Assembly: GCF_011075055.1 (NCBI RefSeq)
Contig: NC_058153.1
Location: forward strand, 8,184,001-8,248,000
DNA from: Mangifera indica
Lineage: Eukaryota > Streptophyta > Magnoliopsida > Sapindales > Anacardiaceae
DNA: 64,000 bases
Direction of reading: 5' to 3'
The translations under genes were made by a program, and so were the position numbers. The notes below the pieces were generated by a model. That model ran no database searches. It saw only the letters and a program-made list of their open reading frames with translations, and was not told the origin of the DNA. Numbering within the stretch: position 1 is the first letter of the stretch; each line of letters opens with the position of its first letter. This document shows, piece after piece, positions 7,334 to 62,822 of the stretch.

Positions 7334-11770
<4,437 letters not shown>

Positions 11771-13102
11771 TGTTATAAACAGCCCAACAGATATTGTTCG
11801 CTTTGGGCTTCAGACCCGCACAGTTTTGTTACTAAAACGCGTCTATTGAGTTAAGGGCTTCTGGCCCCTGCTTATGTACAAGCTCAATAAACAGAACGGG
11901 AGCGATGTGGGACTTCAGGTCACAACACACTCCCCCATCGCTATCGTGCTAATAACGTGTTATAAACAGCCCAACAGATATTGTCCGCTTTGGGCTTCAG
12001 GCCCGCACGATTTTGTTCCTAAAACGCGTCTATGGAGAGCAAGGTCTACGGGACCTGCATGGGCCACAGATATTGTCCGCTTTGGATCTGCAGGATCCTC
12101 ACGGTTTTATTACGCGTCTGTTCAGTTGAGGGCTTCTGGCCTCTGCTTATATACAAGTTCAGTAGACAAAATGGGAGCGATGTGGGACTTCATGTTACAA
12201 CACACCCCCCCATCGCTATCGTGCTGATAACGTGTTATAAACAGCCCAACAGATACTGTCCGCTTTGGGCTTCAGGCCCGCATGGTTTTGTTCCTAAAAC
12301 GCGTCTATTGAGTTAAGGGCTTCTGGCCCCTGCTTATATACAAGCTCAATAGACAGAACGGGAGCGATGTGGGACTTCAGGTCACAACACACCCCCCCAT
12401 CGCTATTGTGCTGATAACGTATTATAAACAGCCCAACAGATATTGTCCACTTTGGGCTTCAGATCCGCACGGTTTTGCTCCTAAAACGTGTCTATGGAGG
12501 GCAAGGCCTACGGGACCTGCATGGGCCACAAATATTGTCCGCTTTGGATCTGCAAGATCCTCACGGATTTATTACGCGTATATTGAGTTAAGGGCTTCTA
12601 GCCCCTGCTTATATACAAGCTCAATAGACACAACGAGAGCGATGTGGGACTTCATGTCACAACACACTCCCCCATCGCTATCGTGCTGATAACGTGTTAT
12701 AAACAGCCCAACAGATATTGTCCGCTTTGGGCTTCAGGCTTGCACGGTTTTAAAACGCGTCTATTGAGATAAGGGTTCCTTGCCCCAGCAGATATACAAA
12801 CTCAGTAGACAGAACGGGAGCGATGTGGGACTTCAGGTCACAACACACCCCCCCATCGCTATCGTGGTGATAACGTGTTATAAACAGCCCAACAGATATT
12901 GTTCGCTTTGGGTTTCAAGCCCGCATGGTTTTGTTCCTAAAACGTGTCTATGGAGGGCAAGGTCTACAGGACCTGCATGGGCCACAGATATTGTCCGCTT
13001 TGGATCTTCATGATCCTCACGGTTTTATTACGCGTCTATGGAGGGCAGTTCTACGAGACCTGCATAGGCCACAGATATTGTCCGCTTTGGATCTTCAGGA
13101 TC
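11771..13102 (-). mobile_element. TRIM-like LTR tandem array, block A (units 1-6)
   Basis: Six head-to-tail units whose LTRs, in the minus (gene-sense) orientation, begin TGTTGTGACCTGAAGTCCCA and end GGCTGTTTATAACA (TG...CA). LTR coordinates: 11771-11927 (157 bp), 11958-12202 (245), 12233-12389 (157), 12420-12664 (245), 12695-12845 (151, a 6-bp deletion), and 12876-about 13102 (truncated by a copia pol fragment). Each is separated by exactly 30 bp (for example 11928-11957). Each LTR carries a TATA-like TTGTATATAAG. Long and short LTRs differ by one 88-bp module. Open frames reading through the array on the plus strand are antisense artefacts. Confidence 0.85.
11928..11957 (-). other. 30-bp spacer: primer-binding site fused to polypurine tract
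   Basis: In minus orientation the spacer reads CGTTATTAGCACGATAGCGA, then a G-rich tract, then the next LTR. The same spacer, mostly with CGTTATCAGCACGA, occurs at 12203-12232, 12390-12419, 12665-12694, 12846-12875, 14666-14695 (inverted), 15026-15055, 19222-19251, 19496-19525, 19771-19800, 20046-20075, 20321-20356 (36 bp, longer homopolymer) and 20602-20631. It directly abuts the LTR 3' end, as a PBS should, and its G-run directly precedes the next LTR, as a PPT should. The complement of its first 14 bases matches the anticodon arm of cytosolic tRNA-Ile(AAU) as I remember it. Confidence 0.6.
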
Positions 13103-13990
13103 GATATTTGTTTGATTATTTGTCTTCCTTTTTCGAACAGTTTCCTTCGATCCGACAGGTCTACCACACTTTTGGCGTGCAGTAGATTGATCAGTCACGG
13201 CTCGAATGGACTGTTCAGTAGTCACATTGATTCTTGCTGGTGCATTAACAACTGGAACATGTGATCTTGTCACTTTTGCCGTATTTACAAATGCATCAGG
13301 TATTTGGTTGACAATAATTTGTAAACGCACTATCCTCTGTACTTCAGTTTCACTTTGGGATGTGCGAGGATCTAAATGAGACATGGTAGGTACATACCAA
13401 GCAAGTTCATGCCTAACTTTAGGATGCATTTTCTTTTCCCCTAAAGACGGGAAAGTTGTCTCATTAAAGTAACAATCTACAAATCGTGCAGTAAAAAGAT
13501 CACCTATTAATGGTTCCCGGTACCTGATAATAAATGGTAAATTATATCCAATATATATTCCCAAACGATGTTAGGGTCCCATTTTTGTGCGTTGAGGAGA
13601 CACAATAGAGACATATACAGCAAAACCAAATATTCTCAAATGAGATACATTAGGTTGGTAACCAAAGACCAATTGTAGGGGAGAATATTGATGATAAGAA
13701 GAAGGTCGCAAGCGAATTAACGCTGCAGCATGTAATATAACATGTCCCCACATAGAAGTAGGTAATTGACTTTTTAGTAATAAAGTGCGTGCAATTACCT
13801 GAAGTCGTTTGATAAAAGACTCAGCTAATCCATTTTGTGTGTGGACATACGAGACTGGATGTTCAACCTCAATCCCTATAAAGGTGCAACAATCATCAAA
13901 TGTTTTGGATGTAAATTCACCAACATTATCTAGCCGTATTGACTTGATTGAATAATCTGCGAAATGTGCTTGTCTGCTTAGCACATTTCC
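13103..13990 (-). pseudogene. Ty1-copia integrase fragment and linker to RT
   Basis: Reading the minus strand from 13984 gives the copia integrase core: an IRLDNVGEFTSKTFDDCC segment (second catalytic Asp), HTQNGLAESFIKRLQ (with the Glu of the DDE triad), PTSMWGHVILHAAALIRLRP and FGYQPNVSHLRIFG. From 13564 it continues in another frame as the GIYIGY...SLGEKK segment and the variable linker leading to RT. The first catalytic Asp and zinc-binding region are absent, and a frame break lies near 13567. The 13103 end abuts a truncated TRIM LTR; the 13990 end abuts copia 3' sequence in the opposite orientation. Confidence 0.85.
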
Positions 13991-14143
13991 TAGTAAGGTT
14001 TTAATTCATTATTTAAGCACATCCAACGCCAACTTACAAGATATTTAATAATTATGTTTCTTTGTTTTGGTTTTTATCCCATTGGGTTTTTTCTTAACAA
14101 AGTTAATATAATTATTTGTAAGTGGTGGAAATCCAAAGGGGAG
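13991..14143 (+). mobile_element. Copia internal 3' end with polypurine tract
   Basis: Matches, in the opposite strand sense, the sequence at about 20966-21110 (words such as taagcacatccaacgcc and aagttaatataattattt). It ends CCAAAGGGGAG, a polypurine tract immediately before the LTR. Its junction with the minus-strand integrase fragment near 13990 shows rearrangement. Confidence 0.7.
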
Positions 14144-14470
14144 TGTTGCATATCTAGTGAATTTTCCACCATATGCAGTAAATTTTGACATTAAATGGGA
14201 ATGCATTTAATGGAAGAAGATAAAGCTCAGCAGCCAATTTAGAAAATTTTGGTGGGAATGCAATAAATGAAGTCTGGAGGCCAGCAGGAAATTGGCTATA
14301 TAAAGGACCTTTCCCTTCTTCATTCGACTTTAACAATTTCACAATCTTCTTGCCTTCTGTTTCTTCACTCTTACTTTCTTTTTCTTATTTTGCAACCTTG
14401 AGTGAATAAAATTATCCTTCCATTCTTCAATTTACTCATCTTGTAATTTGTTTATTTTATATTTATAATA
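14144..14470 (+). mobile_element. Ty1-copia LTR (327 bp)
   Basis: It starts TGTTGCATATCTAGTG after a polypurine tract and ends TTATATTTATAATA. It contains a TATA-like GGCTATATAAAGG about 14294-14306 and a T/C-rich R/U5 region. Copies: 15418-about 15648 (3' truncated), 18769-18897 (3' part only) and 20632-20965 (minus, full length 334 bp). The LTR is flanked on one side by PPT and on the other by the PBS-type spacer, as at an LTR-LTR junction. Confidence 0.8.
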
Positions 14471-14508
14471 CGTTATCAGCACGATAGCGATAAGGGGGGG
14501 GGGGGGGG
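14471..14508 (+). other. PBS/G-tract spacer shared by copia LTR and TRIM unit
   Basis: Begins CGTTATCAGCACGATAGCGA directly after the copia LTR. It then has a G run of about 15, longer than in other spacers, and ends at the TGTTGCGACC start of the next TRIM LTR. It shows that the copia family and the TRIM-like family use the same primer-binding sequence. Confidence 0.75.
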
Positions 14509-15362
14509 TGTTGCGACCTGAAGTCCCACATCGCTCCCGTTCTGTCTACTGAACTTGTATATAAACAGGGGCTAGAAGCTCTTAACTCAATAGACGCGTT
14601 TTAAGAACAAAACCGTGCGGGTCTGAAGCCTAAAGCGGACAATATCTGTTGGGCTGTTTATAACACGTTATCAGCACGATAGCGATGGGGGGGTGTGTTG
14701 TGACCTGAAGTCCCACATCGCTCTCGTTCTGTCTACTGAGCTTGTATATAAACAAGGGCCAGAAGCCCTTAACTCAATAGACGCGTAATAAAACCGTGAG
14801 GATCCTGAAGATCCAAAGTGGACAATATCTATGGCCCATGTAGGTCCCATAGACCTTACCCTCCATAGACGCGTTTTAGGAACAAAACCGTGCGAGCCTG
14901 AAGCCCAAAGCGGACAATATCTCATGGTTTTATTACGTGTCTATTGAGTTAAGAGCTTCTAGCCCCTACTTATATACAAGCTCAGTAGACAAAACAGGAG
15001 CGATGTGAGACTTCAAGTCACAACACACCCCCCCATCGCTATTGTGCTGATAATGTGTTATAAACAGCCCAACAGATATTGTCCGCTTTAGGCTTCAGGC
15101 CCGCACGGTTTTGTTGCTAAAACGCGTCTATAGAGGGCAAGGTCTACGGGACCTGCATGGCCACAGATATTGTCCGCTTTGGATCTTCAGGATCCTCACG
15201 GTTTTATTACGCGTCTATTGAGTTAAGGGTTTCTGGCCCCTACTTATATACAAGCTCAGTAGACAGAACGGGAGCGATGTGGGACTTCAGGTCACAACAC
15301 TGATAACATGTTATAAACAGCCTAGCAGATATTGTCCGCTTTGGGCTTCAGGCCCGTACGGT
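14509..15362. mobile_element. TRIM-like LTR array, block B with an orientation switch
   Basis: LTRs 14509-14665 (plus, 157 bp) and 14696-about 14922 (plus, long type, 3' truncated) are followed, at an abrupt head-to-head junction near 14922, by minus-oriented LTRs: about 14923-15025 (partial), 15056-15299 (244 bp) and 15309-about 15362 (truncated by copia 3' sequence). Between the last two the spacer is reduced to a few bases (ctgataac), the only nearly lost spacer. The junctions suggest template switching or repair-based rearrangement after the array formed. Confidence 0.8.
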
Positions 15363-15648
15363 TTTTCTTAGCAAAGTTAATATAATTATTTGTAAGTGGT
15401 GAAAATCCAAGGGGGAGTGTTGCATATCTGGTGGATTTTCCACCATAAGCAGTAAATTTTGACATTAAATGGGAATGCATTTAATGGAAGAAGATGAAGC
15501 TCAGCAGCCAATTTAGAAAATTTTGGTGGGAATGCAATAATGAAGTCTGGAGGCCAGCAGGAAATTGGCTATATAAAAAACCTTTCCCTTCTTCATTCGG
15601 CTGTAACAATTTCACAATCTTCTTACTTCTTGTCTTCTGTTTCTCCAC
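15363..15648 (+). mobile_element. Copia 3' internal tail, PPT and truncated LTR
   Basis: The sequence cttagcaaagttaatataat, then AAGGGGGAG, then an LTR starting TGTTGCATATCTGGTGGATT at 15418. It parallels 14144-14470 but stops within the T/C-rich part near 15648, where gag-like coding begins without a PBS. It contains the TATA-like GGCTATATAAAAAACC. Confidence 0.75.
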
Positions 15649-15661
15649 ATTTCATCCCTCA

Positions 15662-16228
15662 AATATGCTCCTGCAGCCGCAATATAGGAAAAGAAATTTT
15701 AAAAAATATTCTGAACTAATATCTTGTTTATTGGTGGCTGAACAAAAAAATGAATTATTATTAAGGAACCATCAGACTCGCCCCACTGGTACTGCACCGT
15801 TCCCTGAAGTAAACGCAACTACTAGAAATAGTTATCGTGGGTGTAAACGAGGTCCTGGACGAAATAAGTTTCGATCCAGAGATGGTTATAATAGAAAATC
15901 TTTCCACCTTCAAAGGACCAAAGATGAAGCAAAACAGGATAAAGGGAAAATGATATAGAGTAAACCACAGAATCATGATAGTAAATGTTATAGATGTAGT
16001 TCTAAAGGTCATTGGCCGCGTACCTGTCGTACGTCAAGACATCTAGTAGATTTATACCAAGCATCTATTAAAAATACAGACCAGAAGATCGAATCAAATT
16101 GTGTTGATAATCCAAACCCTATAAATCTGGCAAACTTTGATCTTTCAGAATTTCTTCAAAACTAAGAAATTATGTTTATTATAGTGTATAATTAGTACTA
16201 TACGTTTCTTCTTTTCAAATTTTGTAAT
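15662..16228 (+). pseudogene. Ty1-copia gag C-terminal part with zinc knuckle
   Basis: From the ATG at 15665 the frame reads a copia gag segment (KYSELISCLLVAEQKNELL, then NHQTRPTGTAPFPEVNA and an RG-rich stretch). A TAG stop at 15956 interrupts it. The same frame then gives a perfect CCHC zinc knuckle, C-Y-R-C-S-S-K-G-H-W-P-R-T-C (15986-16027), and RHLVDLYQASIK. The family normally has a longer N-terminal capsid part, which is missing here. The MITE at 16229 splits it from the protease segment at 17105. Confidence 0.85.
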
Positions 16229-17095
16229 GGCCAAACGACTATTTCCCACCCAAGGTTTAGCGTTTTCTTAAATGTACCCCCTTTAACTATGGAAACACCA
16301 AACACCCACCCATGGCCGGTTAGATTTAACCAAACCCTAACGCCTAAAAATTTTAACTCCTTTTGCCCCCCTAAACTTTAAAAGCTAAAATTTTCCCCCA
16401 GCCTAAGTTTTAAAAAATCGCAGTTTCACCCTAGGGTTTGGTTTTGAAATCTCCGGCGACCGTTCCGGCTCCGTTGCCGACGGTCTCTCCCTCCCGAAGC
16501 AGCCTCTCCTTCCGACGAATGTTTTCCTCCCATTTGGAGGCTCGATCGGCGTCGGAAACGGGAAGAGGGACGAAGAACTTCGTCGGGGAAGATGAAGTTC
16601 TTCGTCTCCCCAGACGAAGACGAAGCCGTCGTCTTCGTCTGGGAAGACGATCGTCCTCCCACTGGGACGACGATTGTCTTCCCAGACGAAGACGACGGCT
16701 TCGTCTTCGTCCCTCTTCCCGTTTCCGACGCCGATCGAGCCTCCAAATGGGAGGAAAACATTCGCCGGAAGGAGAGGCTGCTTCGGGAGGGAGAGACCGT
16801 CGGCAACGGAGCCGGAACGGTCGCCGGAGATTTCAAAACCAAACCCTAGGGTGAAACTGCGATTTTTTAAAACTTAGGCTGGGGGAAAATTTTAGTTTTT
16901 AAAGTTTAGGGGGGCAAAATTAGATTCTATTTTAGTTTATTTTTAATATTATAGCAAAAATGATGATTTTACCCCTATCACCGTTAGGGTTTGGTTAAAT
17001 CTAACCGGCCATGGGTGGGTGTTTGATGTTTTCATAGTTAAAGGGGGGACATTTGAGAAAACGCTAAACCTTGGGTGGGAAATAGTCGTTTGGCC
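16229..17095. mobile_element. Palindromic Mutator-type MITE with perfect 9-bp TSD
   Basis: Flanked by TTTTGTAAT on both sides (16220-16228 and 17096-17104). It begins GGCCAAACGACTATTTCCCA and ends with the reverse complement. The inverted arms are very long, about 400 bp each, so both strands encode nearly the same 138-codon open frame starting MVLKSPATVPAPLPTVSP (16438 on plus, 16842 on minus); these frames are by-products of the palindrome. The centre is GC-rich and has its own internal repeats of CGAAGACGA/TCGTCTTCG words. The 9-bp duplication and long TIRs fit Mutator-like elements. It encodes no transposase. Confidence 0.88.
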
Positions 17096-17104
17096 TTTTG
17101 TAAT

Positions 17105-17249
17105 CACTAATGTAAATTTTAAAATGAAAGGAAATGGACTCCAAACTTGAAGTATTAACTTCAAAAGCTGGTGATGGAAACCTGTGTTTGGTCGATAGTG
17201 CAACCACCCACATTATATTAAAAGAAAAGAAATTTTTCTTAACTTTATC
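17105..17249 (+). pseudogene. Ty1-copia protease fragment
   Basis: The translation contains SKAGDGNLCLVDSATTHIIL, in which D-S-A is the aspartic protease active-site triplet typical of plant copia elements. It continues the gag sequence that ends at 16228 once the MITE is discounted. It breaks at about 17249, where a TRIM LTR piece begins. Confidence 0.75.
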
Positions 17250-17424
17250 AACTAATAAACGCGTAATAAAACCGTGAGAATCCTGAAGATCCAAAGCGGA
17301 CAATATTTGTGGCCCATGCAGGTCCCGTAGACCTTACCCTCCATAGACGCGTTTTAAAGCCGTGAGGGCTTGAAGCCCAAAGCTGATAATATCTGTTGGG
17401 CTGTTTATAACACATTATCAGCAC
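17250..17424 (+). mobile_element. TRIM-like LTR, block C (5' truncated, plus orientation)
   Basis: Contains the long-type module order with acgcgtaataaaaccgtgag, the gtccgctttgg-complement word and the end GGCTGTTTATAACA at 17412. It is followed by a spacer remnant (cattatcagcac) that stops before its G tract. The 5' part of the LTR is missing. Both ends abut copia sequence. Confidence 0.75.
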
Positions 17425-18768
17425 ATGTTAAAAATTATCCTTTTTTCTTCAGGCAATTTTTATCCTTTTGGGAGTTTCATATAAATTTCAATGTCCAAAT
17501 TTTCATACAAATAAGCAGTAACTACGTCCATTAGACGCATATCTAGTCCTTCAGAAACTGTTAAACTGATTAAATATCTGAATGTGATTATATTCATCAC
17601 AGATGCATATGTTTCATCAAAGTCTATACCAAGTCTTTAGGAAAAGCCTTGGGCTACAAGCTTGGCTTTATATCTAGTAATTTCATTTTTCTCATTTCTT
17701 TTTCTCACAAATACGCATTTATATCCAACGGGTTGCACGTCTTGAGGTGTTGGAACTACAGGCCCAAACACTTGACGTTTTGCTAGAGAAGCTAATTCTA
17801 CTTGAATTGTTTTTTCCCATTTAGGCCAATCATGTCTTTGTTTGCACTCAGCCATAGTACGTGGCTCAAAATCATCATCATTTAGAATTTCAGTAGCTAC
17901 TGCAAATGAGAATATATCATCAATTATAATTGTTTCACAATTTCATATCTCTCGTGTATGAACATAATTTAAAGACATTTCAATATTCTCATTTTCCTGT
18001 TCTTCAGGATTTTATACCACTTCAGGGGTTTGTGCCACTTCAGGGGTTTGTGTCTCTTCAGGGACCATAACCCCTTCTAGAGGAGTATAAGAGAGTGGAT
18101 TTTTCATTTACATTAGGATCATCAAGATTGATATTTGTTTGAGTATTTATCTTTCTTTTTCGAGGAATAGTATCCTTCGATCCGACAAGCCTACCACGCT
18201 TCTAGCGTGTGGTAGATTGATCAGTCACGGCTCGAATGGACTGTTCAGTAGTCACATTGATTCTTGCTGGTGCATTAGCAGCTGAAACATATAATCTTGT
18301 CACTTTTGTCGTATCTACAAATACATCAGGCATTTGGTTGGCAATAATTTGTAAACGCACTATCCTCTGTACTTCAGTTTCACTTTAGGATGTGCGAGGA
18401 TCTAAATGAGATATGGTAGGTACATACCAAGCAAGTTCATGTCTAACTTCAGGAGACATTTTCTTTTCCCCTAAAGACGGGAAAGTTGTCTCATCAAAGT
18501 GACAATCTGTAAATCGTGCAGTAAAAAGATCACCTGTTAATTGTTCCAGGTACCTAATAATAGATAGTGAATTATATCCAACATATATTCCCAAACGACA
18601 TTGGGGTCTCATTTTTGTGCGTTGAGGAGACGCAGTAGGTTAGGGTCTCATATACAGTACAACCAAATATTCTCAAATGAGATACATTAGATTGGTAACC
18701 AAAGACCAATTGTAGGGGAAAATATTGATGATAAGAAGGTCGCAAGCGACTTAACTACTATAAGCCGT
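17425..18768 (-). pseudogene. Ty1-copia integrase C-end, linker and RT N-half
   Basis: On the minus strand: an integrase C-terminal piece (18745-18613, damaged), a GIYVGYNSLSIIRYLE...SLGEKK segment (18612-18385), a variable linker with stops, then the RT start ECKQRHDWPKWEKTIQVELA and GYKCVFVRKRNEKNEITRYK followed by KLVAQGFS (17855-17637). RT then runs out of frame to a YMKLPKG-like word near 17450. The RT catalytic region is missing. It overlaps the content of the fragment at 13103-13990 (both carry the SLGEKK region), so two different copies or a duplication are present. Confidence 0.85.
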
Positions 18769-18897
18769 TCTTGCCTTCTGTTTCTTCACTCTTGCTTTCT
18801 TCTTCTTAATTTGCAGCCTTGAGTTAATAAAATTATCCTTCCATTCTTCAATTAACTCATCTTGCAATTTGTTTATCTTATATTTATAATACGGTAT
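18769..18897 (+). mobile_element. Copia LTR 3' part
   Basis: Matches the last ~130 bp of the copia LTR at 14144-14470 (ttcttgccttctgtttcttc to ttatatttataatac) and continues into a four-base spacer remnant (ggta) before a reverse-oriented TRIM LTR. Confidence 0.75.
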
Positions 18898-20601
18898 CAG
18901 CCCAACAGATATTGTCCACTTTGGGCTTCAGGACCGCACGATTTTGTTCTTAAAACGCGTCTATGGAGGGCAAGGTCTATGAGACCTGCGTGGGCCACAG
19001 ATATTGTTCGCTTTGAATCTTCAAGATCCTCACAGTTTTATTACACGTCTATGGAGGGTAAGGTCTACGGGACCTGCATGGGCCACAGATATTGTCCGCT
19101 TTGGATCTTTAGGACCCTCACGGCTTTAAAACGCGTCTATTGAGTCAAGGGCTTCTGGCTCCTACTTATATACAAGCTCAAGAGACAGAACGGGAGCAAT
19201 GTTGGACTTCAGGTCACAACACACCCCCCCATCGCTATCGTGATGATAACGTGTTATAAACAGCCCAACAAATATTATCCGCTTTGGGTTTCAGGCCCGC
19301 ACGGTTTTGTTCCTAAAACGTGTCTATAGAGGGCAAGGTCTACGGGACCTGTATGGGCCACAGATATTGTCGCTTTGGATCTTCAGGATCCTCACGATTT
19401 TATTACGCGTCTATTGAGTTAAGGGCTTATGGCCCCTGCTTATATACAAGCTCAGTAGACAGAACGGGAGCGATGTGGGACTTCAGGTCACAACACACCC
19501 CCCCATCGCTATCGTGCTGATAACGTGTTATAAACAGTCCAATAGATATTATCCGTTTTGGGCTTCAGGCCCGCATAGTTTTGTTCCTAAAACGTGTCTA
19601 TGGAGGGCAAGGTCTACGGGAGTTGCATGGGCCACAGATATTGTTCGCTTTGGATCTTCAGGATCCTCACAATTTTATTATGCATCTATTAAGTTAAGGG
19701 CTTCTGGCCCCTGCTTATATACAAGCTCAGTAGACAGAACGGGAGCGATGTGGGACTTCAGGTCACAACACACCCCCCCATCGCTATCGTGCTGATAACG
19801 TGTTATAAACAGCCCAACAGATATTGTCCACTTTAGGCTTCAGACCCGCACGGTTTTGTTCCTAAAACGTGTCTATGGAGGGCAAGGTCTACGGGACTTG
19901 CATGGGCCACAGATATTGTCCGTTTTGGATCTTCAGGATCCTCACAATTTTATTATGCGTCTATTGAGTTAAGGGCTTCTAGCCCCTGCTTATATACAAG
20001 CTCAGTAGACAGAACGGGAGCGATGTGGGACTTTAGGTCACAGCACACCCCCCCATCGCTATCGTGCTGATAACGTGTTATAAACAGCCCAACAGATATT
20101 GTCCGCTTTGGGCTTCAGGCCCGCACGGTTTTGTTCCTAAAACGTGTATATGGAGGGCAAGGTCTACGGGACTTGCATGGGCCACAGATATTGTCCGTTT
20201 TGGATCTTCAGGATCCTCACGATTTTATTACGCCTCTATTGAGTTAAGGGCTTCTGACCCCTGCTTATATACAAGCTCAGTAGACAAAACGGGAGCGATG
20301 TGGGACTTCAGGTCATAACACACCCCCCCCCCCCCATCGTTATCGTGCTGATAACGTGTTATAAACAGCCCAACAGATATTGTCCGCTTTGGGCTTCAGG
20401 CCCGCACGGTTTTGTTCCTAAAATGTGTCTATGGAAGACAAGGTCTACGGGCCCTGCATGGGCCACAGATATTGTCCGCTTTGGATCTTCAAGATCCTCA
20501 CGATTTTATTACACGTCTATTAAGTTAAGGGCTTCTGGCCCCTACTTATATACAAGCTCAGTAGACAGAACGGGAGCGATGTGGGACTTTAGGTCACAAC
20601 A
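18898..20601 (-). mobile_element. TRIM-like LTR tandem array, block D (units 13-18)
   Basis: Minus-oriented LTRs: 18898-19221 (324 bp present; lacking the terminal 9 bp it would be 333 bp, i.e. three modules), 19252-19495 (244), 19526-19770 (245), 19801-20045 (245), 20076-20320 (245) and 20357-20601 (245). Spacers are 30 bp except 36 bp at 20321-20356, where the C run on the plus strand is longer. The copies are visually very similar, suggesting recent or homogenised amplification. The array is followed at 20602-20631 by one more spacer, then a minus-oriented copia LTR. Confidence 0.87.
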
Positions 20602-20631
20602 CACACCCCAATCGTTATCGTGCTAATAACG

Positions 20632-20965
20632 TATTATAAATATAAGATAAACAAATTGCAAGATGAGTTAATTGAAGAATGGAAGGATAATTTTATTAAC
20701 TCAAGGCTGCAAAATAAGAAGAAGAAAGTAAGAGTGAAGAAACAGAAGGCAAGAAGCAAGAAGATTGTGAAATTGTTACAGCCGAATGAAGAAGGGAAAG
20801 ATCCTTTATATCGCCAATTTCCTGCTGGCCTCCAGACTTCATTTATTGCATTCCCACCAAAATTTTCTAAATTGGCTATTAAGCTTCATCTTCTTCCATT
20901 TAATGGGTTCCCATTTAATGTCAAAATTTACTGCATATGGTGAAAAATCCATCAGATATGTAACA
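20632..20965 (-). mobile_element. Ty1-copia LTR (334 bp)
   Basis: In minus orientation it starts TGTTACATATCTGATGG right after the polypurine tract AAGGGGGAG (20966-20974) and ends ATTTATAATA. It is then followed by the same 30-bp spacer used between TRIM LTRs. Internal text matches the plus copies at 14144 and 15418. It sits as the first 'unit' of the minus-oriented TRIM array. Confidence 0.8.
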
Positions 20966-21310
20966 CTCCCCCTTGGATTTCCACCTCTTACAAATAATTA
21001 TATTAACTTTACTAAGAAAAAACCCAATGAGATAAAAATCAAAGCAAAGAAACGTAATTATTAAATATCCTATAAGTTGGCGTTGGACGTGCTTAAACTG
21101 CCTCATTAAAAACCTTACTAGGAAAACCTACTGGGACAAAACCTAATGAAGGAAAAAAGAGTACAGTGTACCTTTTGTCCAATATTTGATAAACTACAAA
21201 ATTCTTTGCCTGATGAACGCTCTTCCTCTTTGTAGTAGGATTAACTTTGTTGCTTATTAAGCCGCCGCATACCGATGTACTCTTTGGGCTTCAGGCAAAA
21301 AAATTTTGTT
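20966..21310 (-). mobile_element. Copia internal 3' tail
   Basis: Non-coding tail on the minus strand, with words such as gttttcctagtaaggttttt and aagcacgtccaacgcc plus a final AAGGGGGAG PPT, parallel to 13991-14143. The upstream limit near 21310, next to an actctttgggcttcaggc word on plus, is approximate. RNase H coding is not found beside it. Confidence 0.6.
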
Positions 21311-21779
21311 AACAATCCCCTTCCCCTTCCACTTCCTCTTCCTCTATCTCCTGAAGAGAAAAGGAAGTCCTTAACAATCCCCAACTTCAAAAAATTTAAA
21401 ACTTAAATTATTTTGTTAAAATGCACAGTAATGGATGATTTTTATAGTTAAGGGCTAGATAACTATAAGAAAAATGATGAATACTACAACTTAAAATTTC
21501 AACATAAGCCCACCCTTTTCGGAAATTTTAAATGAAATTATCAATTATGTGCATCTATTGCACTCACATGCTCTCATCCCTCATCTTAAACATTAAACTT
21601 CATGATCACATTAAATATCTACATCATGTTGACACCATAAACCTCTATCTTCATAACCCTCACACCATCATGACACGCATGACAAGTGTAGTTGGTGTAG
21701 CAATCTCGTTCATAAGGAGAAATGTGTTGATATTGTTCAACAAAACGCAAGGATATACAAAACTATACACAAATTTGCA
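21311..21779. other. Unassigned intron sequence
   Basis: AT-rich with a short C/T-rich tract near 21320-21360. No gene, repeat or element ends recognised. Confidence 0.35.
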
Positions 21780-23250
21780 AAGCAATTCTTAAAGAAGACT
21801 CACTCTAAAATTTTTTTAATAAACTTGAATTGATGAATTACAGAAACTCATGTCCTTTATATAAGCTTCTAATATCTTACCATGTCACGCCACCTTGTCC
21901 CATCATCACACCACCTAAGCTATAATGTTTACATCATCCACTCTTGCTCCCTCTTGTTATGAGTCTTCAATGTTATCAATATCTTCCACCCAACACCCTC
22001 TTGCCATGATTAATTCTTCTCTTCATTCACCTTCTCCATCCAACCTCCATCTTGCCTTAAATCTTCCTTAAACCTCTTTTCTCTCCATGCCATAGCCTTG
22101 TTTTTCCTCTACAAGTCGAAGGCCTTGGTCCCCTATTATTCTCCCTCATTAAAAACGAAAATGAAACTTGCCCTCGAGTTGTCATCATGCAATGTACCCT
22201 TCACACATATAAAAGGATCAAACCACGATTTGATCCTTACCTTCATTCAAGGATGGAAATTTTGTTTCTAACGATCTATCCATTTAATAATAGGCTTTTT
22301 ATGTTGATGAAAAATTTGATGGTGATTATGACCTGGAGTTACAAAAAAGAGGGAAGAAAACCCATTAAAACAGTGAACCCTATAAACTGAAGGTTGATCT
22401 ACGTAATTTTAATGGTGTGATAGATATAGAGCAATTCATTGATTGGATGTACAAGGTGAAGCGATTCTTGGCCATTATGCAAATTGGGCCAGCACAAAAA
22501 ATAAGTTTAATAGCTTATAAATTAAACGGCAAAGCTTATAGTGAGAAGGACCAAGGCTTTCAACTCATGGAGAGAAAACAAGGTTAAAACATGTAGAGAA
22601 GCCAAGGCAAGAGAACGGAGAGGATCCAAAGCAAAAACTATGCACAACAAAACCAAACAACTAAAGAAAATTACAGTTTAGTCCTTTGTATAGGCCTTTA
22701 ATATCCTACTTAGGTTAATAGGAAAATTAGTTTAACTAGAAAGAGAAAACCCAATTTAACTAAGGCATAAACCCTATCTTTAATAAAACTAATCTAACAA
22801 AGACTCTATTACATTGAATTTAATTAACTTCCTAAACATAAAATATTGCTAAACACATTAGAACTGTTTAAAGAGTTATTAATTATAACTCCATAACAAT
22901 AAGAAATTGACTTTAAATAAAAGACTTTAAAACATTCAAAACTTGAATTAAAACTCTAACTAAAATTGTCCCACATGGTTTAGGAATTCCACATACACAC
23001 AACTCTACATCATTACGCCATATCACTTTGCCATGAAACATCATGAGTCTTCAATGTTGTTAATCATACCCTATCACCCTCTTGCCAAGGTTCTTTCTTA
23101 TCTTTATTCACTTTTTCCACCCAACCTCTCTCTTGCCTTAGGTATTTCTTAGATCTCTTTTCTCTTCATGTTTTAACCTTGTCTTCCCTCACTGAGTTTA
23201 AGACCTTGGTCCCCCATCATATTTTCCACTTTGAATCAGTCAACTAGAGC
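21780..23250. mobile_element. Decayed gypsy element: gag remnant between LTR-like repeats
   Basis: Two diverged direct copies of an LTR-like sequence (about 21840-22140 and 22960-23230) share words such as gagtcttcaatgttrt, accctcttgcca, ccttggtcccc and a CT-rich end. Between them, 22388-22550 (plus) translates as a gypsy gag start (LKVDLRNFNGVIDIEQFIDW, then IGPAQKISLIAYKLNGKAYS). This resembles the gag at about 28800-28960, so both may be one family. A third, inverted LTR piece appears to lie at 22545-22640. Ends are not defined. Confidence 0.5.
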
Positions 23251-24641: not shown

Positions 24642-25370
<729 letters not shown>

Positions 25371-28469: not shown

Positions 28470-31313
28470 TAGGTGGTACCAAAGTCTTGTCTTAAGATGA
28501 CTACGCATGCAGAAAATCAAGATTGGTGTACTAGTTTTGAGCAACAAATGGCCACATTGGTTAGACCTGTGGAGGGAGTATTACACAAGTCGGTGGATAC
28601 AAACCAACCTATCCACATTACAACCTACACAAACCACTCCTAATCTACAAAGGATAATTTCAATTCTTCCTAGGGAAATGCAACCAAGGAGAGAAGAGGT
28701 TTCTACATAACCTGAGCAAGGTGTTGATGAAGAATCTAAAGGTGATTATAACCCAAAGCCATAAACAAGAGGGAGGAAAGCCTATTAAAATCGTGAACCT
28801 TATATACTGAAGGTTGATTTTCCTAGTTCAACGATGTAGTAGATATTAAGCAATTTCTCGATTTGATGTATAAAGTGGAGTGATTTTTTGATATCATGTA
28901 GATCAAGCCAACACAAAAAAGTAAGTTTGGTAGCTTATAAATTAAAGGGAGGAGCTAGTGCATGGTGGCAAAGGCATCAAGAACAATTAAGGATGAAGGG
29001 ACAACCAATTGTAAGAGATTGGGAGTCGATTAAAACTTTATTGAAGTCTCAATTTCTACCATTTGATTACAAGCAAACTTTGTTCCAACAACTTTAAAAT
29101 TGCTACCAAGGAACTAGAACCGTGGCGGTTTATATGAAGGAGTTTCTATAGCTACAGTCCCAACATAACTTGAGTGAGATCGAAGATCAACAAGTTGCGA
29201 GGTATGTAAATAGGTCAAATTATTCTATTCAAGATTACTTAGTGATGCAAATCATATAGTCTATAGATCAAGTTCAAAATTTTGCTCTAAGAATGAAAGA
29301 ATTTTGAAGAATAGAAGACTACCAAGGAGTAACATCAATAGGCAGCAAAAGATTGAAGTAAAGAAACCTATAGTCCAAAGTAATGCAAGAACATAAGAAA
29401 CCATGCCTAAATCAGCAAAATTAAAAAGGAATGAAAAGGTAGAGCTAAGCAAGGTTTTGAAATGTTTCAAGTGTAATGAAATTGGGCACAAATCAAGCAA
29501 TCACCCTAAAAGGAGATTTGTTAACATGTCATGACAAGAAGAGGAAAGAGAAAATTTTGATGAAGAAAGCATTAAAGAAGAAGAAATAAATGAAGTGACA
29601 AAGAGCAAGGTGAATGCTTAGAGTACATGGTAAGACAAATCTTATACCCCCTATTGAAGTTGATTATTCACAAAGTAAAAAATATTTGAAGAAAAGTGTT
29701 TTGTTAATTCAAAAGTGTGCAAACCAATGATTAATGGGTGTAGTAGTGAAATTCTAGTAGGAAAAGGCATTGTAGACCACTAAAAATTGAAACTAAATGA
29801 CACTCTCACCCTTATAATGTTAGTTGGATTAAAAAAAGACCTAGTGTGAGAGTAATTGAGCAATATAGACTATATTTGTCTTTAGGAAAAACTTATAAAG
29901 TTAAGATGTTGTGTGATGTTATGGAGATGGATGTTTGTCATGTACTTCTAAGGAGACCTTTGCAATATGATATAGATACAACTTGTAGGGGTTGTGACAA
30001 TACATACTTTTTTAAGTGGAAATAAAGGAGGATTATTGTGGTTACTAAAAAGAGAGACGTGAGTGGTCTAAAGAAAGATGGGAAGGTCTTGCTTTTGTTA
30101 CCCTTAGAGAATGAGGAATTCCTCGACACCATAAAAGAGATAAAAACTCCAATAGCCTCTATTATGGGATATTCAAAATTAGATTGATTCAATTCCTATT
30201 GCTACTTTACCAAATTTACAACATTATCATATAGGTTAAGTGAAAGAATTACTAAGGAAGGGACACATTTGAGAAAGTATTAGTCCATGTGTTGCACCTA
30301 ACTTGTTGGCCCAAAGAAGGATAAGAGTTAGAGGATATGTGTAGATAGTCGTACCATCAACAAAATAACAATGAGGTATAGATTTCCTATTTCTAGACTT
30401 GATGATTTGCTAGACCAAATGCATGGTACCAAAGTGTTTTCAAAGTTAGAATTGAAGAGTAGACGTCACCACATTAGAGTTCAACCAGAAATGAATGGAA
30501 AACTATATTCAACATAAAAGACAGTTTTTATGAATGGTTAGTCATGTCGTTTGGACTTTCAAATACACCAAACACATTTATGAAGTTGATGAATCAATTA
30601 TTAAGACCATTCTTATTTGGTTTTGTTGTGGTTTACTTTAATGACATTTTAATTTATAGTAAGAGTGATAAGAAGCATTTAAATCACATAAAACAAGTGT
30701 TTGTGGTTTTGAGGGAGAACAAATTATATGTGAAATCAAAAAACTGTATGTTCTTGACAAAAACAAACTATTATTCTTAGGCTTCATAATTAGTGATGGG
30801 AAATACATATGGATAAAGAGAAGATTTAAGCGATAAGAGAATGGAAGACACTAAAAAAATTAGGTAAGGAGTTTTCATAGGTTAGCTACATTCTGTAAGA
30901 GGATCATTTGTAATTTTACTGGGATTGTACAACCTATCACAAATTATTTGAAGAAAGTAAATTCCAATAGGGAGAAAAAGTAGATCATAACTTTGAATTA
31001 ATTAAAGAGAAATTAACAACAGCTCTTGTTTTATCATTGCTTGATTTTAGAAAATTTTTTGAGTTAGAGTGTGATGCTAGTGGAATTGGGATTGGTGGAG
31101 TATTTTCATAAAAAGGTAGACCGATTACTTTCTTCAATGAGAAGTTAAGTCAAGCTAGGAAAAGGTGGTCCACCTACCAATAAGAATTAATGTAGTATTT
31201 AGATGCTTGAAGGCATAAGAGCCTTATTTATTACCGAAGGAGTCTATCATCTATTTGGACCACCAAACCTTTCATCACTTTAGGACCCCAAAAGCATAAA
31301 AACTAAATGTTAG
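28470..31313 (+). pseudogene. Ty3-gypsy gag-protease-RT-RNase H (5' part of a split element)
   Basis: Order read on plus: gag (SLVAYKLKGGASAWWQRHQE at about 28925, QFLPFDYKQTLFQQL at 29052), a zinc-knuckle-like CFKCNEIGHKSSNHPKR near 29462 whose last Cys is His, a protease region around 29800-29960, RT from about 30230 with FVVVYFNDILIYSKSDKKHL at 30628, and RNase H from about 31000. The RT catalytic Y-x-D-D is Y-F-N-D here, and many stops are present. The frame is split at 31313 by an Athila-like insertion and resumes at 36677. Clade not certain (Reina-like or similar). Confidence 0.82.
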
Positions 31314-32847
31314 TGATAACATCGTTAATTGTTATTATTTTGATTTCTAATTCTCTTATGTTGTGTGAAAATTTAATTCAATCTAATGGAATTATTTATC
31401 TTTTTGTATTTAGGAAGCTTTGAACATTTTTAGAGTAAGTTAGACCAAGAAGATTCAAAATTGGAGCAGACCTATTAATCTACAAAATCTGTGATACTAA
31501 CTAGGCGTGGGCACGTAAAATGACAAAAGCATAATTCGAAATTTAAATCTAGACATCCAGATCAGCTGAGATATTCCACAAAAGTCAAGATTTACTTTTT
31601 AGAAAAGAGGTGATTAGTAACTAAAAAAGGGGATTATTTTAGATAGATAAGGAAAGATATTTTTAGAGGAAGAATATATATTAAAATATATATCTTTTCC
31701 TTTCTTTTTGGGAAGATATATATCACATTTATTTGGTTGGATTAAGAGATTATGATTGACCTTTTATTTCTAGATCTAAGTAAGGAGAAAATATATATAT
31801 TTTTATTTTTTATTTTGCGGGGGATCGATCATTGTAATTAGTAGAAACATTTTTCTAGAATTTTGGCTGGCCTAGGATGGTTTATAGTGGTTAAACTCTT
31901 TTCTCTTGGTTAAAGGGATCTGAAACCATGGAACTACAAAAATTGTGAGATTAAGTTTTGTTCTTTAATGCATCTTTTAATTATTCAAGTATTGATTATT
32001 TTCCTAGATTATTTATTGTGATTATATTAGTTGATTGCTAAAGTTGCGTGATTAGTTTATTGATTAATACGATCTAATGCTAATTTAGATGTTGAATCTA
32101 ATTGTTCAATCCATCTGATCGAAGTGGCAACTGAGATTTATTGTTTATTGTGTCAGAAACTATAATTCCTAGGGAAAATATTCAACTAGATTAAATGCAA
32201 CGTCATACACTTGTGTTTTCTTGTTTCGTTAGTCTTTATAATTCTTAATGCTACTATTTAATTAAATTCGAGATTGTATCCGAGTTGTTAACCGATAAGG
32301 GTTAATTGGAATACATGTTTTTGGCTAACTAATCATAATGAAAAACAGGTAATCAATACCATAACGAATATTTGAATAATTATTTTGATATTTTTTTGGT
32401 ATCAATGATCAATCGTAGTTCAATGGTAGATGTGACCATAGACCAAGGTTTGTTAAATTGATTAATTACATTCAGATTACTTTGCCAAATTTTTATTTAT
32501 TTACTGTTTTTAATTATAATTTGCATTCAATTCAAAAACCCCATATTCCTTGTTTTGATTGATTTGTGACGACGTACTAATTAAAATTCTTCGAGGGAAC
32601 AATCCCCACTTTCCTTTACTACATTTTTGTTATAGGAATTTAGGATTTTAATTTGGGTGTCAATGACAACACTTACCAAATTTTGGCACCGTTGGGGAGT
32701 TTTTAAATTGTATGTTCATTACATGATCTTCAAAACAAGCTAATTTACAATTTGATCCAGAGATTAAAAAGATTGCAAAAGGGTTGAGAAAAGAAGCCAA
32801 AAAGAGACTACAAGCACACAAATCTGCTTACGAAACAAAAGAACACA

Positions 32848-34060
32848 TGGCTGAAAATCAGACTTTAAGAGAGCTTGTTGCTCCAGATTTGAACCAATAA
32901 CCACACTGCATTACTTTTCCTAATTTAGATGCTAATACTACATTTGAATTAAAATCTAGACCGATCAATCTTTTACTTATTTTTCGTGGCTCCGCAAGTG
33001 AAGATCCTCATAAACATTTAAAGGAATTTCAGGTGGTGTGCACAAGTATGAAATCGAATAGAGTAACAGAGGAATAAATCAAGATAAGAGCTTTCCCATT
33101 TTCTTTGAAAGATGATGCGTAAGGTTGGTTTTATTACCTATCTACTGGAAGCATCACCATTTGGCATGAGATGAAGAGGTTGTGTCTACAGAAATTTTTT
33201 CCAACTTCAAGAACTGCTAGCATACGGAAGGAAATCTGTGGCATTAGGCAACATACTGGAGAGTCTTTATACTAATATTGGGAGCATTTTAAAAAACTTT
33301 GTGCAAGTTGTCTGCACCACCAAATTAGTAACTAACTCCTTATTCAATATTTCTATGAAGGATTTCCATCCAATGATAGGAATATGATTGATGCAATGAG
33401 TGGTGGAGCATTGGCTAACAAAACATCTAAGGCAGCCCGAAATTTAATTGCAAACATGGCATCAAATTCACAACAATTCAAGAATAGATTGGACCATTCG
33501 TCTCAACGTGTCAATGAGGTAAATGTCTCTTCTCTTGAAAAACGGCTTGATGATCTAACTTCTCTTGTATGTCAAATGGCTGTAGGAAAAATGGAGGAAG
33601 CAAAAGTTTGTGGAATTTGCTCAATTGGTAGGCATCTAACTGATACGTGTCCAACACTTCAAGAGGACTACTTTGAGCAAGCTAATGTAGTAGGTGGATT
33701 TCTAGGACAACAGTAGCAAAATTGTAATTATAATCCTTATTCGAATATTTACAACCCAGGTTGGAGGGACAATCCTAATCTTCGTTATGGGAATGCACAT
33801 GCGAATCAACCTGCAAATAACTTTCAACCATATTAGCAGTCTTATATTCCTAGATAACAACAACCAACTCAAAATTCTAATTCAAGTACATCTTTTGAAG
33901 ATATTGTTAAAACTTTGACTACTAATACTGTGAAATTTCAGTAAGAAACCAGAACTAGCATTCAAAATCTAGAAAATCAAATGAGCCAAATGGCTACTGC
34001 AATTAGTAGGCTGGAAACACAAAATTCAAGTAAACTACCATCACAAACTGTGGTGAACCC
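32848..34060 (+). pseudogene. Athila-like gag (element 1)
   Basis: Starts at the MAENQTLRELVAPDLNQ-like segment, then a retrotransposon gag domain with several stops (TAA for CAA, TAG for CAG). An open part at 33384-33716 includes RRVNEVNVSSLE-like text and a half knuckle CGICSIGRHLTDTC. It continues to [17 protein letters not shown] near 34065, where it joins integrase-tail sequence at a deletion point. Same family as the gag at 43640. Confidence 0.8.
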
Positions 34061-34380
34061 AAAGGAGAAAACAAAGGCATTTCATGACAAAATGATTTCC
34101 ATAAAAGAATTTCCAATTGGCCAAAAAGTTCTCCTTTATCATTCAAGACTTCGGTTGTTTCCAGGTAAATTGTGATCTCGTTGGATTGGACCTTTTGTTG
34201 TTACTAACATTATTCCGCATGATACAGTAGAGATTCAAAGCTTAGCGACCTTGAAAGTGTTTAAAGTGAATGGTCACAGACTCAAACCTTTTTATGAAGG
34301 ATTACAAATTGAAAATGTCAAAGAAGTGGAGCTGAGAGACCTCGTATACATTGATAAATAGACGGAGGCATTACGTCGAG
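34061..34380 (+). pseudogene. Integrase C-terminal tail of Athila-like element 1
   Basis: [20 protein letters not shown], then FPGKL, a stop, RWIGPFVVTN and VFKVNGHRLKPFYEG: the tail found after the integrase core in Athila/Tat-type elements. It is fused directly to gag, so about 3 kb of protease-RT-RNase H-integrase is missing. Confidence 0.75.
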
Positions 34381-36676
34381 CCGACGACAGTAAACAAAGG
34401 CGCTACTTAGAAGGCAACCCAAGTTTTTAGTCTTATTTTAATTGATACTTCAATTTTAAATTTTCTGGACATTTGTTTTTAATTTCAGTTTATATGATTC
34501 AATTTTGATTTTAAAAGTTTTAGGATCTTTGATATTTAATTGGCAACTATTTTTATAATTTTTTTTTATCAAGTTCATTTTAATTAATTAATTTTTTTTA
34601 CTATTCAATCATCTTCTTCCTTCTGCTAGGTTCTAGTTAGCCTTCTGTAAACTTTCACGGGAGAGCAATCTATATTTTAGTGTTTTGGAACTAGGTCATG
34701 TGTTTTTGTGAAAGTTCAGATCTTGCTACATTATTTTATTAAACATAAGGGGCCCACATGCTTAAGTGTAAGTATAATGTTAGGTTATATGTTTCCAAGA
34801 ATCATATTGGCCAAAACCCATGTACCACACTTTCTCTTCCACTTAAGCCCTAGCAACCTCTGTCCTTATTCTGTACCACCGTGGTAAGAACCCGCTCACC
34901 ACGGTTTATCTACTTTTCTATTATATTTTTTTTTCTATTTTGTTCTATGCTCTGTACTTTTTTTCTTTCTATTCCTCTTTATGTTTTTCTTCTTTTGATT
35001 ATGCCCTATTTGTCGTATTGATCTGTCTTTGTTGTTGTTCGCTGCTAGTTAAAGTTTGGTTTTTGTGTATGTTTTTCATTGATATGACAACTAGTGTATT
35101 CTCCCTTGTTTTAGTCAACCAAACAATTCCATTAATGTTATTTTGAATGAATTAAATTGTATGCATGTCATAGGATTTAGCCGATTAAATATGAGAGTAA
35201 TGTACACTGATTTGTTAGATTAACTAAGAGTATGCACTTAAACAAAATTTGATAATTAAATGATAAAGCTTTGTTTGAAGTTGAGGTGAATTGATTTAAC
35301 CCATGAGTTTTGAGTTGAAAAAGATTGAAACATACATATCAATCTATGTTTTCTTTGATAAGTGATATTCTCCTATGTGAATATGTCTCTAGAACTTGCT
35401 TTGAACCGTTTCAAGACTACATTGATATAGGCATGCATGAAAATGATAAAAGCATTCTTGTCTAAACCCTTTAGCTTAAAAAACCAACCTATTTTAATTT
35501 CCCTAGTTAGTCCTTTGAGCCTTACAAAACCTTGATTCTTTGAGATAAAACCAAATTACAAACCTAAGCTTTCAAGTAAAATTCCTCACCTAACCATGAT
35601 TGTTAGCAAGGCATTTAAATTGAATTTTGTTCTTTGGTGAGTTTACTATCTTAAAAAATTTAAGTGTAGGGGAAAAGAGGACTTAAATGCATTAGGATGA
35701 GATTATGAAAAGAAGTTGGCATAAAGATTTGTTATTGTTACTGCCTTATGTTGTGATCTTTACTCTCAAATTCTCTTAGTTATTTAAGAAAAAAAAAAAA
35801 AAGAGAGAAAAAAAAGAAAAAAAGAGAGAGAAGAGGAAGGCAGTAGCAAGTAGCCAAGAAATGACAAGAGAAATGTGGTGTTTTCAGTTTTAGATTTTTG
35901 TTCCCTTTATATGTTTAAATGTTTTATTAACACTCATAGTTCTAACCTTTCGTATCTATTAATCCTTACGTTTATCCGAAGCCCCATTATAACCTAAAAT
36001 AAAGTCTTTTTGATTTATGCATGTATATGATCTAAGTGGTGGAGATTTGATGCATAAGCAAGACTATGGTAGAATGTTTGCATTGGAAGAATTTGAGTGA
36101 AACACCGAACCATTAAACATATGAGTGTTATGAGCGATAACCGTGAGGAGATTCACCAAAACTTCATACATGCTTTAGAATGCGATTGTCTTGATTTGTC
36201 TTTGTGCACATCTCCTTGTAAAGTTTGATGATGATGTGTATTGATGCTTAAGTCTTGACTGGTTTGAATCTTAAGGTATGCACACTTTTTGGTATCATGA
36301 GAAAAGAGATTGATGGAACTTTTTTGTTTTTGTTTTTGTTTTACTCGAGAACGAGCAAAAGATAAGTGTGGGGGAATTTGATAAAGTCGTTAATTGTTAT
36401 TATTTTGATTTCTAATTCTCTTATGTTGTGTGAAAATTTAATTCAATCTAATGGAATTATTTATCTTTTTGCATTTAGGAAGCTTTGAACATTTTTGGAG
36501 TAAGTTAGGCCAAGAAAATTTAAAATTAGAGTAGACTTATTATTCAGATTATTTTGATTGATTTGTGATGATGTATTAATTAAAACTCTTTGAGGGAACT
36601 ACTTTCTTTTACTACATTTTTGTTGCAGGAATTTAAAATTTTAATTTAAGTATCGACAACAACACTTACCAATTAG

Positions 36677-37223
36677 CAAGATGGGCCACCTTAAGAGATT
36701 TAGTTATGTGATAGTTTATAAAACGAGTGCAACTAATAGAGTGGCAGATGCATTAAGCAGAAGAGCAACATTGTTAATCATAATTGCCATTGAAATAACT
36801 GTGTTTAAGAAACTTAAGTAACTATATGAGAAGGTTGAAGATTTTGACAAGATATGGAATAATTATTTACTTAATCTTCTTATGGATGATTTTATTGTTC
36901 AAGATGGGTATTTGTTTATAGGGAGTTAATTATGTATTCCAAAGGGCTCATTAAAAGATAAGTTTATTAGAGAGTTGCATTCAAGTGATTTAAATGAACA
37001 TATGAGTAGAGATAAAACTATAGTTGGATTGCAAGAGAGGTATTATTGGCCTAAATTGAAGCAAGATTTAGGGAAGTTTGTCCAAAGGTGCCTTATTTGC
37101 CAAATTAATAAGGGACATCAACAAAACACATGATTATACATGTTGTTAACCATCCCTAAAGTACCTTGGGATGATTTTTCCATGGATTTTGTGTTGGGTT
37201 TGCCAAGAACTCAAATATGATTT
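36677..37223 (+). pseudogene. Ty3-gypsy RNase H end and integrase zinc domain (resumed)
   Basis: Continues the gypsy element from 31313: YKTSATNRVADALSRRATL-like RNase H end, then HSSDLNEHMSRDKTIVGLQE, RYYWPKLKQDLGKFVQRCLI and CQINKGHQQN, giving the H-H-C-C zinc domain, and WDDFSMDFVLGLPRTQ with the first integrase Asp region. The frame stops at 37223, where a copia element is inserted. It resumes at 56976. Confidence 0.85.
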
Positions 37224-37228
37224 AATGT

Positions 37229-38564: not shown

Positions 38565-38734
38565 ATTGATATTAAAGCTTGGATTCTAGTTTTTTTTTAA
38601 TCTAATTATTTTTAAAGTAAACGATTTTCTTTCTTAATAGGTAGTACATCTACTCCTATTTTCGCTAAATGACAATGCACCACTAGACCACTTTTTTTTT
38701 TTTTTTTATGGAACAAATTATATCCAATAAAAAA

Positions 38735-42122: not shown

Positions 42123-42127
42123 CCAGG

Positions 42128-43468: not shown

Positions 43469-43639
43469 AATTTTGGCACCGTTGCCGGGGAGTTTTTAAT
43501 TTGTATGTGCGTTACGCGATCTTTGAAACAAGCTAGTTTACAGTTTGATCCAAAAATTGAAAAGACTACAAAAGGGCTGAGAAAATAAGCAAAAAGGAGA
43601 CTGCACGCACACAAAGCAGTTCACGAAACAGAGGAAAAC

Positions 43640-44653: not shown

Positions 44654-44707
44654 CAACCAACTCAAAATTTTGATTCAGGTACATCTCTTGAAGATATTGT
44701 TAAAAGT

Positions 44708-49623: not shown

Positions 49624-49628
49624 CCAGG

Positions 49629-62813: not shown

Positions 62814-62822
62814 TTTCTAAAA

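What the first reader, a model, noticed from the sequence alone, without database searches (positions are those of the whole stretch)
11928..11957. Primer-binding site matches the tRNA-Ile(AAU) anticodon arm, with the variable base at inosine-34
The complement of the spacer start is TCGTGCT(A/G)ATAACG. From memory, plant cytosolic tRNA-Ile(AAU) contains TCGTGCTAATAACG around its anticodon. Most spacers here have G (PBS C) at the one differing position, which is anticodon position 34. That base is inosine in mature tRNA-Ile(IAU) and is copied as G. The PBS would abut a primer 3' end at about nucleotide 40, close to the half-tRNA priming known for Drosophila copia (a 39-nt tRNA-iMet fragment). 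Two spacers (11928-11957 and 20602-20631) carry the unmodified A/T form. This would be a genomic footprint of reverse transcription of an inosine-containing half-tRNA primer.
Basis: partly seen in the sequence, partly recalled or inferred. Interest (0 to 1): 0.85.

Follow-up and report, generated by a model that had tools for sequence, protein, structure and literature searches.

The report
Plant jumping-gene array primed by half-tRNA
A plant intron carries a tandem cluster of tiny retrotransposons whose copying start site matches the anticodon arm of an isoleucine tRNA, including its edited inosine base; this way of priming was already described for the Bianca lineage in 2019.

Summary
Observation confirmed. 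The spacers between tandem LTR-like repeats begin, on the element strand, with CGTTAT(C/T)AGCACGA, the complement of nt 27-40 of plant tRNA-Ile(AAU) (tRNA recalled; ARAGORN reads it as tRNA-Ile(aat)). Of 15 aligned sites 13 carry C and 2 carry T facing position 34. The outermost LTR ends exactly before this site, against non-repeat DNA, so the implied primer is a 5' half-tRNA ending near nt 40. Two sub-claims are not borne out: position 34 is no hotspot, and the T forms need no unedited primer (85 of 129 substitutions in the array are C>T or G>A). What is there is a tandemly arrayed miniature element (LTRs mostly 157 or 245 bp, internal region mostly 30 bp) sharing its PBS with degraded copia elements in an intron of an ADAGIO/ZTL-like gene. 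One oddity remains: a 16-nt complement of the same (recalled) tRNA's 3' end inside an LTR insert.

The parts
11928..11957 (-).
11771..11927 (-). Outermost short LTR_B (157 bp), ending TTTATAACA against unrelated DNA at 11770
11958..13102 (-). Rest of LTR_B array 1: LTRs of 245, 157, 245 and 151 bp with 30-bp spacers (PBS at 12219, 12406, 12681, 12862), last LTR truncated
14144..14470 (+). LTR_A of a copia element (327 bp, TGTTGCATATC...TTTATAATA), preceded by AAAGGGGAG
14471..14484 (+). PBS (C form) directly after LTR_A; the spacer runs to 14508 with a long G run and then LTR_B begins: LTR_A-PBS-LTR_B junction
14509..14925 (+). LTR_B copies on the plus strand with PBS 14666-14679; second copy broken
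14925..15363 (-). LTR_B copies on the minus strand with PBS 15042-15055 (2 mismatches) and a spacer cut to about 9 bp at 15300-15308
15418..15640 (+). Partial LTR_A (its 3' end and PBS are missing), followed by a gag-like zinc-knuckle remnant at 15959-16165 (below Pfam's cut-off)
17250..17426 (+). LTR_B fragment with a decayed PBS (17413-17426, 3 mismatches)
17460..18639 (-). Copia remnants: SH3-like integrase-end piece (18385-18639, below cut-off), then RVT_2 pieces 17637-17942 (below cut-off) and 17460-17636 (above it)
13028..14005 (-). Second set of copia remnants: SH3-like match in 13571-14005 (below cut-off); 13028-13570 has no Pfam match, but 13135-13434 is 92% identical to 18165-18464
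18901..20601 (-). LTR_B array 2 (PBS at 19238, 19512, 19787, 20062, 20343); complete LTRs 244-245 bp with the insert; spacer at 20321-20356 is 36 bp, the others 30
20602..20631 (-). Second T-form spacer (PBS 20618-20631), between LTR_A and LTR_B
20632..20965 (-). LTR_A (334 bp), preceded by AAGGGGGAG
12052..12067 (+). Example of GACCTGCATGGGCCAC inside the LTR_B insert, equal to the 3' end of the recalled tRNA-Ile; on the element strand it is the complement of that tRNA

Best explanation
The spacers are the whole internal region (PBS plus polypurine-like tract, mostly 30 bp) of a miniature non-autonomous LTR retrotransposon, here in tandem arrays of LTR-PBS-PPT units. Reverse transcription would be primed by a 5' half of tRNA-Ile(IAU) cut near nt 40: the 14-nt PBS pairs with nt 27-40 with its C facing inosine 34, and synthesis would start directly into the LTR. 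The proteins would come from a copia element that shares the PBS (LTR_A here), probably Bianca-like. Arrays would arise by LTR recombination or insertion of tandem cDNA and then decay by C>T change. Shown: PBS sequence, its place at the LTR end, its sharing by LTR_A and LTR_B, copia remnants nearby, C>T-biased decay. Inferred: primer use, trans-mobilisation, array formation, Bianca membership.
For: 10 exact PBS matches, 8 C and 2 T; LTR border at 11771/11770; 14-nt match to the recalled plant tRNA-Ile(AAU); no TGG at the border, so no ordinary tRNA 3'-end PBS (sequence); longest word complementary to the spacer is 7 nt in the LTR_B copy tested and 5 nt in LTR_A; the PBS is shared by two LTRs that are otherwise not alike (96 of 500 shuffles score as well); RVT_2 and SH3-like remnants; Neumann et al. 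2019 report this PBS type for Bianca; Kojima 2024 reports fungal TRIMs and Copia elements with anticodon-loop PBSs, tRNA-Ile included; Gao et al. 2016 report tandemly arrayed TRIMs in 35 of 43 plant genomes.
Against: The species' tRNA-Ile gene was not read; the tRNA was recalled after the window was read. No intact autonomous element with LTR-PBS-gag is in the window. No target-site duplication was identified. Only 1 of 6 coding pieces passes Pfam's cut-off. The PBS is not clearly more conserved than the LTR (5 of 154 against 120 of 2679). Lineage phylogeny was not testable; no RNA or cDNA data.
Confidence: 0.86

Rival explanations
1. The two T-form PBSs were copied from, or selected for, an unedited A34 tRNA half.
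For: T is the exact complement of the gene sequence; the two T copies are the outermost spacers of the locus on either side.
Against: 85 of 129 substitutions among 12 LTR_B units are C>T or G>A; the CHG rate is 26 of 326, and the C concerned lies in CAG, so about 1 of 15 is expected from decay alone. Inosine can pair with U as well as with A and C, as the 2019 paper notes.
Confidence: 0.12
2. Self-priming by a cut piece of the element's own LTR RNA, as predicted for TAR and Tcn1 elements.
For: Predicted for 12% of the elements in the 2019 survey.
Against: The longest LTR word complementary to the PBS spacer is 7 nt in LTR_B and 5 nt in LTR_A (one copy of each tested), below the 10-bp rule of the 2019 survey.
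Confidence: 0.02
3. The array is simply a satellite-like repeat whose 14-mer resembles a tRNA by chance.
For: The repeats are tandem and non-coding, and no dispersed copy was shown.
Against: The 14-mer also abuts unrelated LTR_A copies at 14471 and 20631, preceded by purine-rich tracts and with copia remnants nearby, and the same PBS type is published for Bianca.
Confidence: 0.04

Closest known systems
Bianca lineage of plant Ty1/copia (Neumann et al. 2019, PMC6317226; passages seen)
   Same: PBS complementary to edited half-tRNA-Ile with I34; copia coding remnants beside it.
   Different: LTR_B units have no coding sequence; lineage phylogeny not tested here.
Tandemly arrayed TRIMs (Gao et al. 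2016, PMC4717578, passages; Cassandra arrays, PMC7215508, abstract)
   Same: Short LTRs alternating with short internal regions, several units long.
   Different: Internal region mostly 30 bp; half-tRNA-Ile PBS; LTR_A-LTR_B junctions; inverted blocks mixed with copia remnants.
Fungal Helenus TRIMs (Kojima 2024, PMC10886601; parts 1-3 of 6 and passages)
   Same: Miniature elements with anticodon-loop PBSs, tRNA-Ile-AAT among them, shared with Copia partners.
   Different: Helenus LTRs carry a tRNA-like promoter; none is detectable in LTR_B.
Drosophila copia and yeast Ty5
   Same: Priming at the anticodon loop of a tRNA (cited in Kojima 2024); copia's 39-nt tRNA-iMet fragment is recalled and given in the finding.
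   Different: Other tRNA (initiator methionine for Ty5 by the title; for copia recalled); no inosine (recalled).

Membership tests
Bianca (Ty1/copia) | PBS complementary to edited 1/2tRNA-Ile | tested here: met
   against the description; tRNA sequence recalled
Bianca (Ty1/copia) | Placement by RT, RH and INT phylogeny | not testable with these tools
   only broken pieces in the window; REXdb not held
Bianca (Ty1/copia) | Copia domain order, integrase before RT | tested here: inconclusive
   an SH3-like piece at 18385-18639 (below Pfam's cut-off) lies upstream of RVT_2 pieces at 17460-17942 on the minus strand, as expected, but these are separate pieces in a rearranged locus
TRIM / TA-TRIM | Short LTRs around PBS and PPT, no coding capacity, under 1 kb | tested here: met
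   LTRs of 151-245 bp and spacers of mostly 30 bp with PBS and G-rich tract
TRIM / TA-TRIM | Target-site duplication and dispersed copies | tested here: inconclusive
   left border seen at 11770/11771 but no matching right end; genome search unanswered
Helenus (TRIM with tRNA-like promoter) | tRNA-like sequence with boxes A and B in the LTR | tested here: not met
   no tRNA by ARAGORN in the window and no tRNA match in Rfam up to E 1 over 8000-23000
Retrozyme | Hammerhead ribozyme in the LTR | tested here: not met
   no hammerhead match in Rfam up to E 1 over 8000-23000; family described in PMC4918200, passages

The most novel reading that the evidence does not exclude
LTR_B has touched the same tRNA twice: the 88-bp LTR insert is a diverged copy of the LTR 3' part whose homology ends at CTGT, where a 16-nt complement of the tRNA-Ile 3' end begins (GTGGCCCATGCAGGTC, with a further GACCTT after a gap). 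This could be a fossil of reverse transcription running into a full-length tRNA-Ile primer, hence a switch from 3'-end to half-tRNA priming on one tRNA, or a second tRNA contact site like those of Ty1 and Ty3 (recalled).
Probability: 0.12. Interest if true: 0.6.

Novelty: new member of a known kind. Interest (0 to 1): 0.3.

Why it matters
It shows a half-tRNA-type PBS in a miniature plant element whose internal region is little more than that PBS, matched to an inosine-bearing tRNA half, and which shares the PBS with copia elements. PBS finders that look only for tRNA 3' ends (TGG) would miss such elements. The priming principle itself is already published.

Tried and rejected
Own-genome search for tRNA-Ile genes and dispersed copies: six identical requests unanswered. 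Contig scans for plant-like tRNA-Ile sequence: the 16-mer TCGTGCTAATAACGCG occurs in 4 IMG/VR loci, in none of which ARAGORN finds a tRNA; the 3'-end pattern hit one IMG/VR locus that holds 19 tRNA genes and is not a plant tRNA-Ile; three further scans found nothing (in GTDB contigs, 39 in IMG/VR). Literature string searches: the PBS string gave 10 papers, none on retrotransposons by title, not opened; the tRNA strings gave none. Rejected: full-length tRNA 3'-end PBS (no TGG at the border), self-priming, hammerhead retrozyme, Helenus-type promoter, position-34 hotspot. The TGTT/AACA families of Rosaceae (PMC5659011, passages) are placed in the Ale lineage, and their two TRIM families have 1.6-2.0-kb interiors, so I did not pursue them. 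Supplementary files of the 2019 survey were not read.

Full report
What was checked. The finding's spacer 11928-11957 and its partner 20602-20631 exist as described. On the minus strand each starts with CGTTATTAGCACGA; other spacers have C at the seventh base. A scan allowing 3 mismatches found 18 sites (3.97 expected; 0 of 100 shuffles reach 18); 10 are exact, 8 C-form and 2 T-form. I aligned 15 of the 18, dropping 18892 (junction broken) and the isolated hits 50075 and 63751: C 13, T 2 at the column facing tRNA position 34.

Anatomy. Direct repeats spaced mostly 275 or about 187 bp recur in three blocks plus a fragment near 17250. Read on the PBS strand, each unit is LTR_B (mostly 157 or 245 bp, TGTTGTGACC...TTTATAACA) followed by a spacer, usually 30 bp (36 at 20321, 38 at 14471, about 9 at 15300): 14-nt PBS, TAGCGAT, then a G run. 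The outermost LTR_B ends at 11771 against unrelated DNA at 11770, which fixes the LTR 3' end directly before the PBS without appeal to any tRNA. The LTR 5' end is less certain: I take TGTTG, because at 14509 it follows the G run directly, but two more bases (TG) could belong to it. Of 12 units aligned, 8 carry an 88-bp insert and 4 do not. A second, unrelated LTR (LTR_A, 327 and 334 bp in its two complete copies, plus two partial copies; pairwise identity 92.8-98.4% in five of six comparisons, 79% over 62 bp in the sixth, between the two partial copies) precedes the same PBS at 14471 and 20631, and a broken one at 18892. Purine-rich stretches precede both complete LTR_A copies. Of six coding pieces searched in Pfam, five match something at E 0.01 or better (SH3_retrovirus twice, RVT_2 twice, zinc knuckle once), but only one, an RVT_2 piece, passes the curated cut-off; one has no match. 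LTR_A-PBS-LTR_B junctions could come from plus-strand transfer between co-packaged RNAs through the shared PBS, or from ordinary recombination; I cannot tell which. Both insertion of tandems and recombination are discussed for tandem LTR elements (PMC11899658, passages).

Primer. The PBS is the complement of nt 27-40 of plant tRNA-Ile(AAU), recalled and checked only in that ARAGORN reads it as tRNA-Ile(aat). The T form matches 14 nt of the plant, 13 of the yeast and 12 of the human tRNA (all recalled). The C form differs only at position 34, which is inosine in the edited tRNA. The match stops at nt 27; nt 26 is usually m2,2G in eukaryotic tRNAs (recalled), a block to reverse transcriptase, so the PBS length is what copying of the primer would give. 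That is suggestive only, as any mismatch would end it. There is no TGG at the border and no self-complementary word longer than 7 nt in the LTR copies tested.

Position 34. It is not a hotspot. Among 15 sites, columns 2, 7, 9, 13 and 14 vary in 2, 2, 2, 3 and 1. In 12 LTR_B units 85 of 129 substitutions are C>T or G>A; rates are 26 of 326 at CHG, 18 of 297 at CG and 41 of 891 at CHH sites. The C facing I34 lies in CAG, a CHG site, so two T copies fit ordinary decay. Substitutions are 5 of 154 in the PBS, 4 of 176 in the rest of the spacer and 120 of 2679 in the LTR (one unit's flank left out), so there is no strong conservation signal.

Prior work. Kojima 2024 (PMC10886601; parts 1-3 of 6 and passages) reports fungal TRIMs with anticodon-loop PBSs, tRNA-Ile-AAT among them, shared with Copia. 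Gao et al. 2016 (PMC4717578; passages) report tandemly arrayed TRIMs in 35 of 43 genomes, and Kalendar et al. 2020 (PMC7215508; abstract) tandem Cassandra arrays. I saw no report of a plant TRIM with a half-tRNA-Ile PBS in searches; the lists of 14, 41 and 42 were capped (20 of 36, 25 of 80, 25 of 68), supplements were not read, and most subscription papers are not held.

Oddity. The LTR_B insert is a diverged copy of the LTR 3' part; the similarity ends at CTGT, where a stretch equal to the complement of the recalled tRNA-Ile 3' end begins: 16 of 16 nt, then GACCTT after a 5-nt gap. None of 2000 shuffled tRNAs and none of 20000 Markov LTRs scored as well. Copies with at most 3 mismatches occur at 13 places, 5 of them exact. 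Against it: it rests on a 3' end recalled after the window was read; recalled human and yeast tRNA-Ile show no such match (1328 and 1299 of 2000 shuffles score as well); AGGTC-CCGTA-GACCT is itself a small hairpin like others in this LTR, which could explain GACCTT; 4 of 12 units lack the insert; LTR_A shows nothing like it (1538 of 2000).

Verdict. A new array of a known kind using a published priming mode. Interest 0.3.

Noticed in passing
8687-8941 and 24756-24866, minus strand: The locus lies in a roughly 15.8-kb intron of an ADAGIO/ZTL/FKF1-like gene: a recalled LOV-domain query matches in two parts. The F-box and Kelch parts were only read by eye.
   Followed up: partly
16226-17098: An approximately 870-bp stretch that aligns to its own reverse complement at 80% (foldback), with related pieces at 62373-62461 and 62591-62822; all 13 Rfam matches (miRNA families) lie in it and below gathering scores.
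   Followed up: partly
31264-49625: Several families of 2 to 4 dispersed direct repeats, about 61-98% alike, suggesting another repeated element or duplicated genes (20 of 32 families shown).
   Followed up: no
1561-2167 and 57491-57902: Two short tandem duplications, spacing 307 bp (79%) and 207 bp (98%).
   Followed up: no
18892-18905: LTR_A end joined to an LTR_B in the opposite orientation, apparently at a CAG microhomology: a rearrangement breakpoint (by eye).
   Followed up: partly
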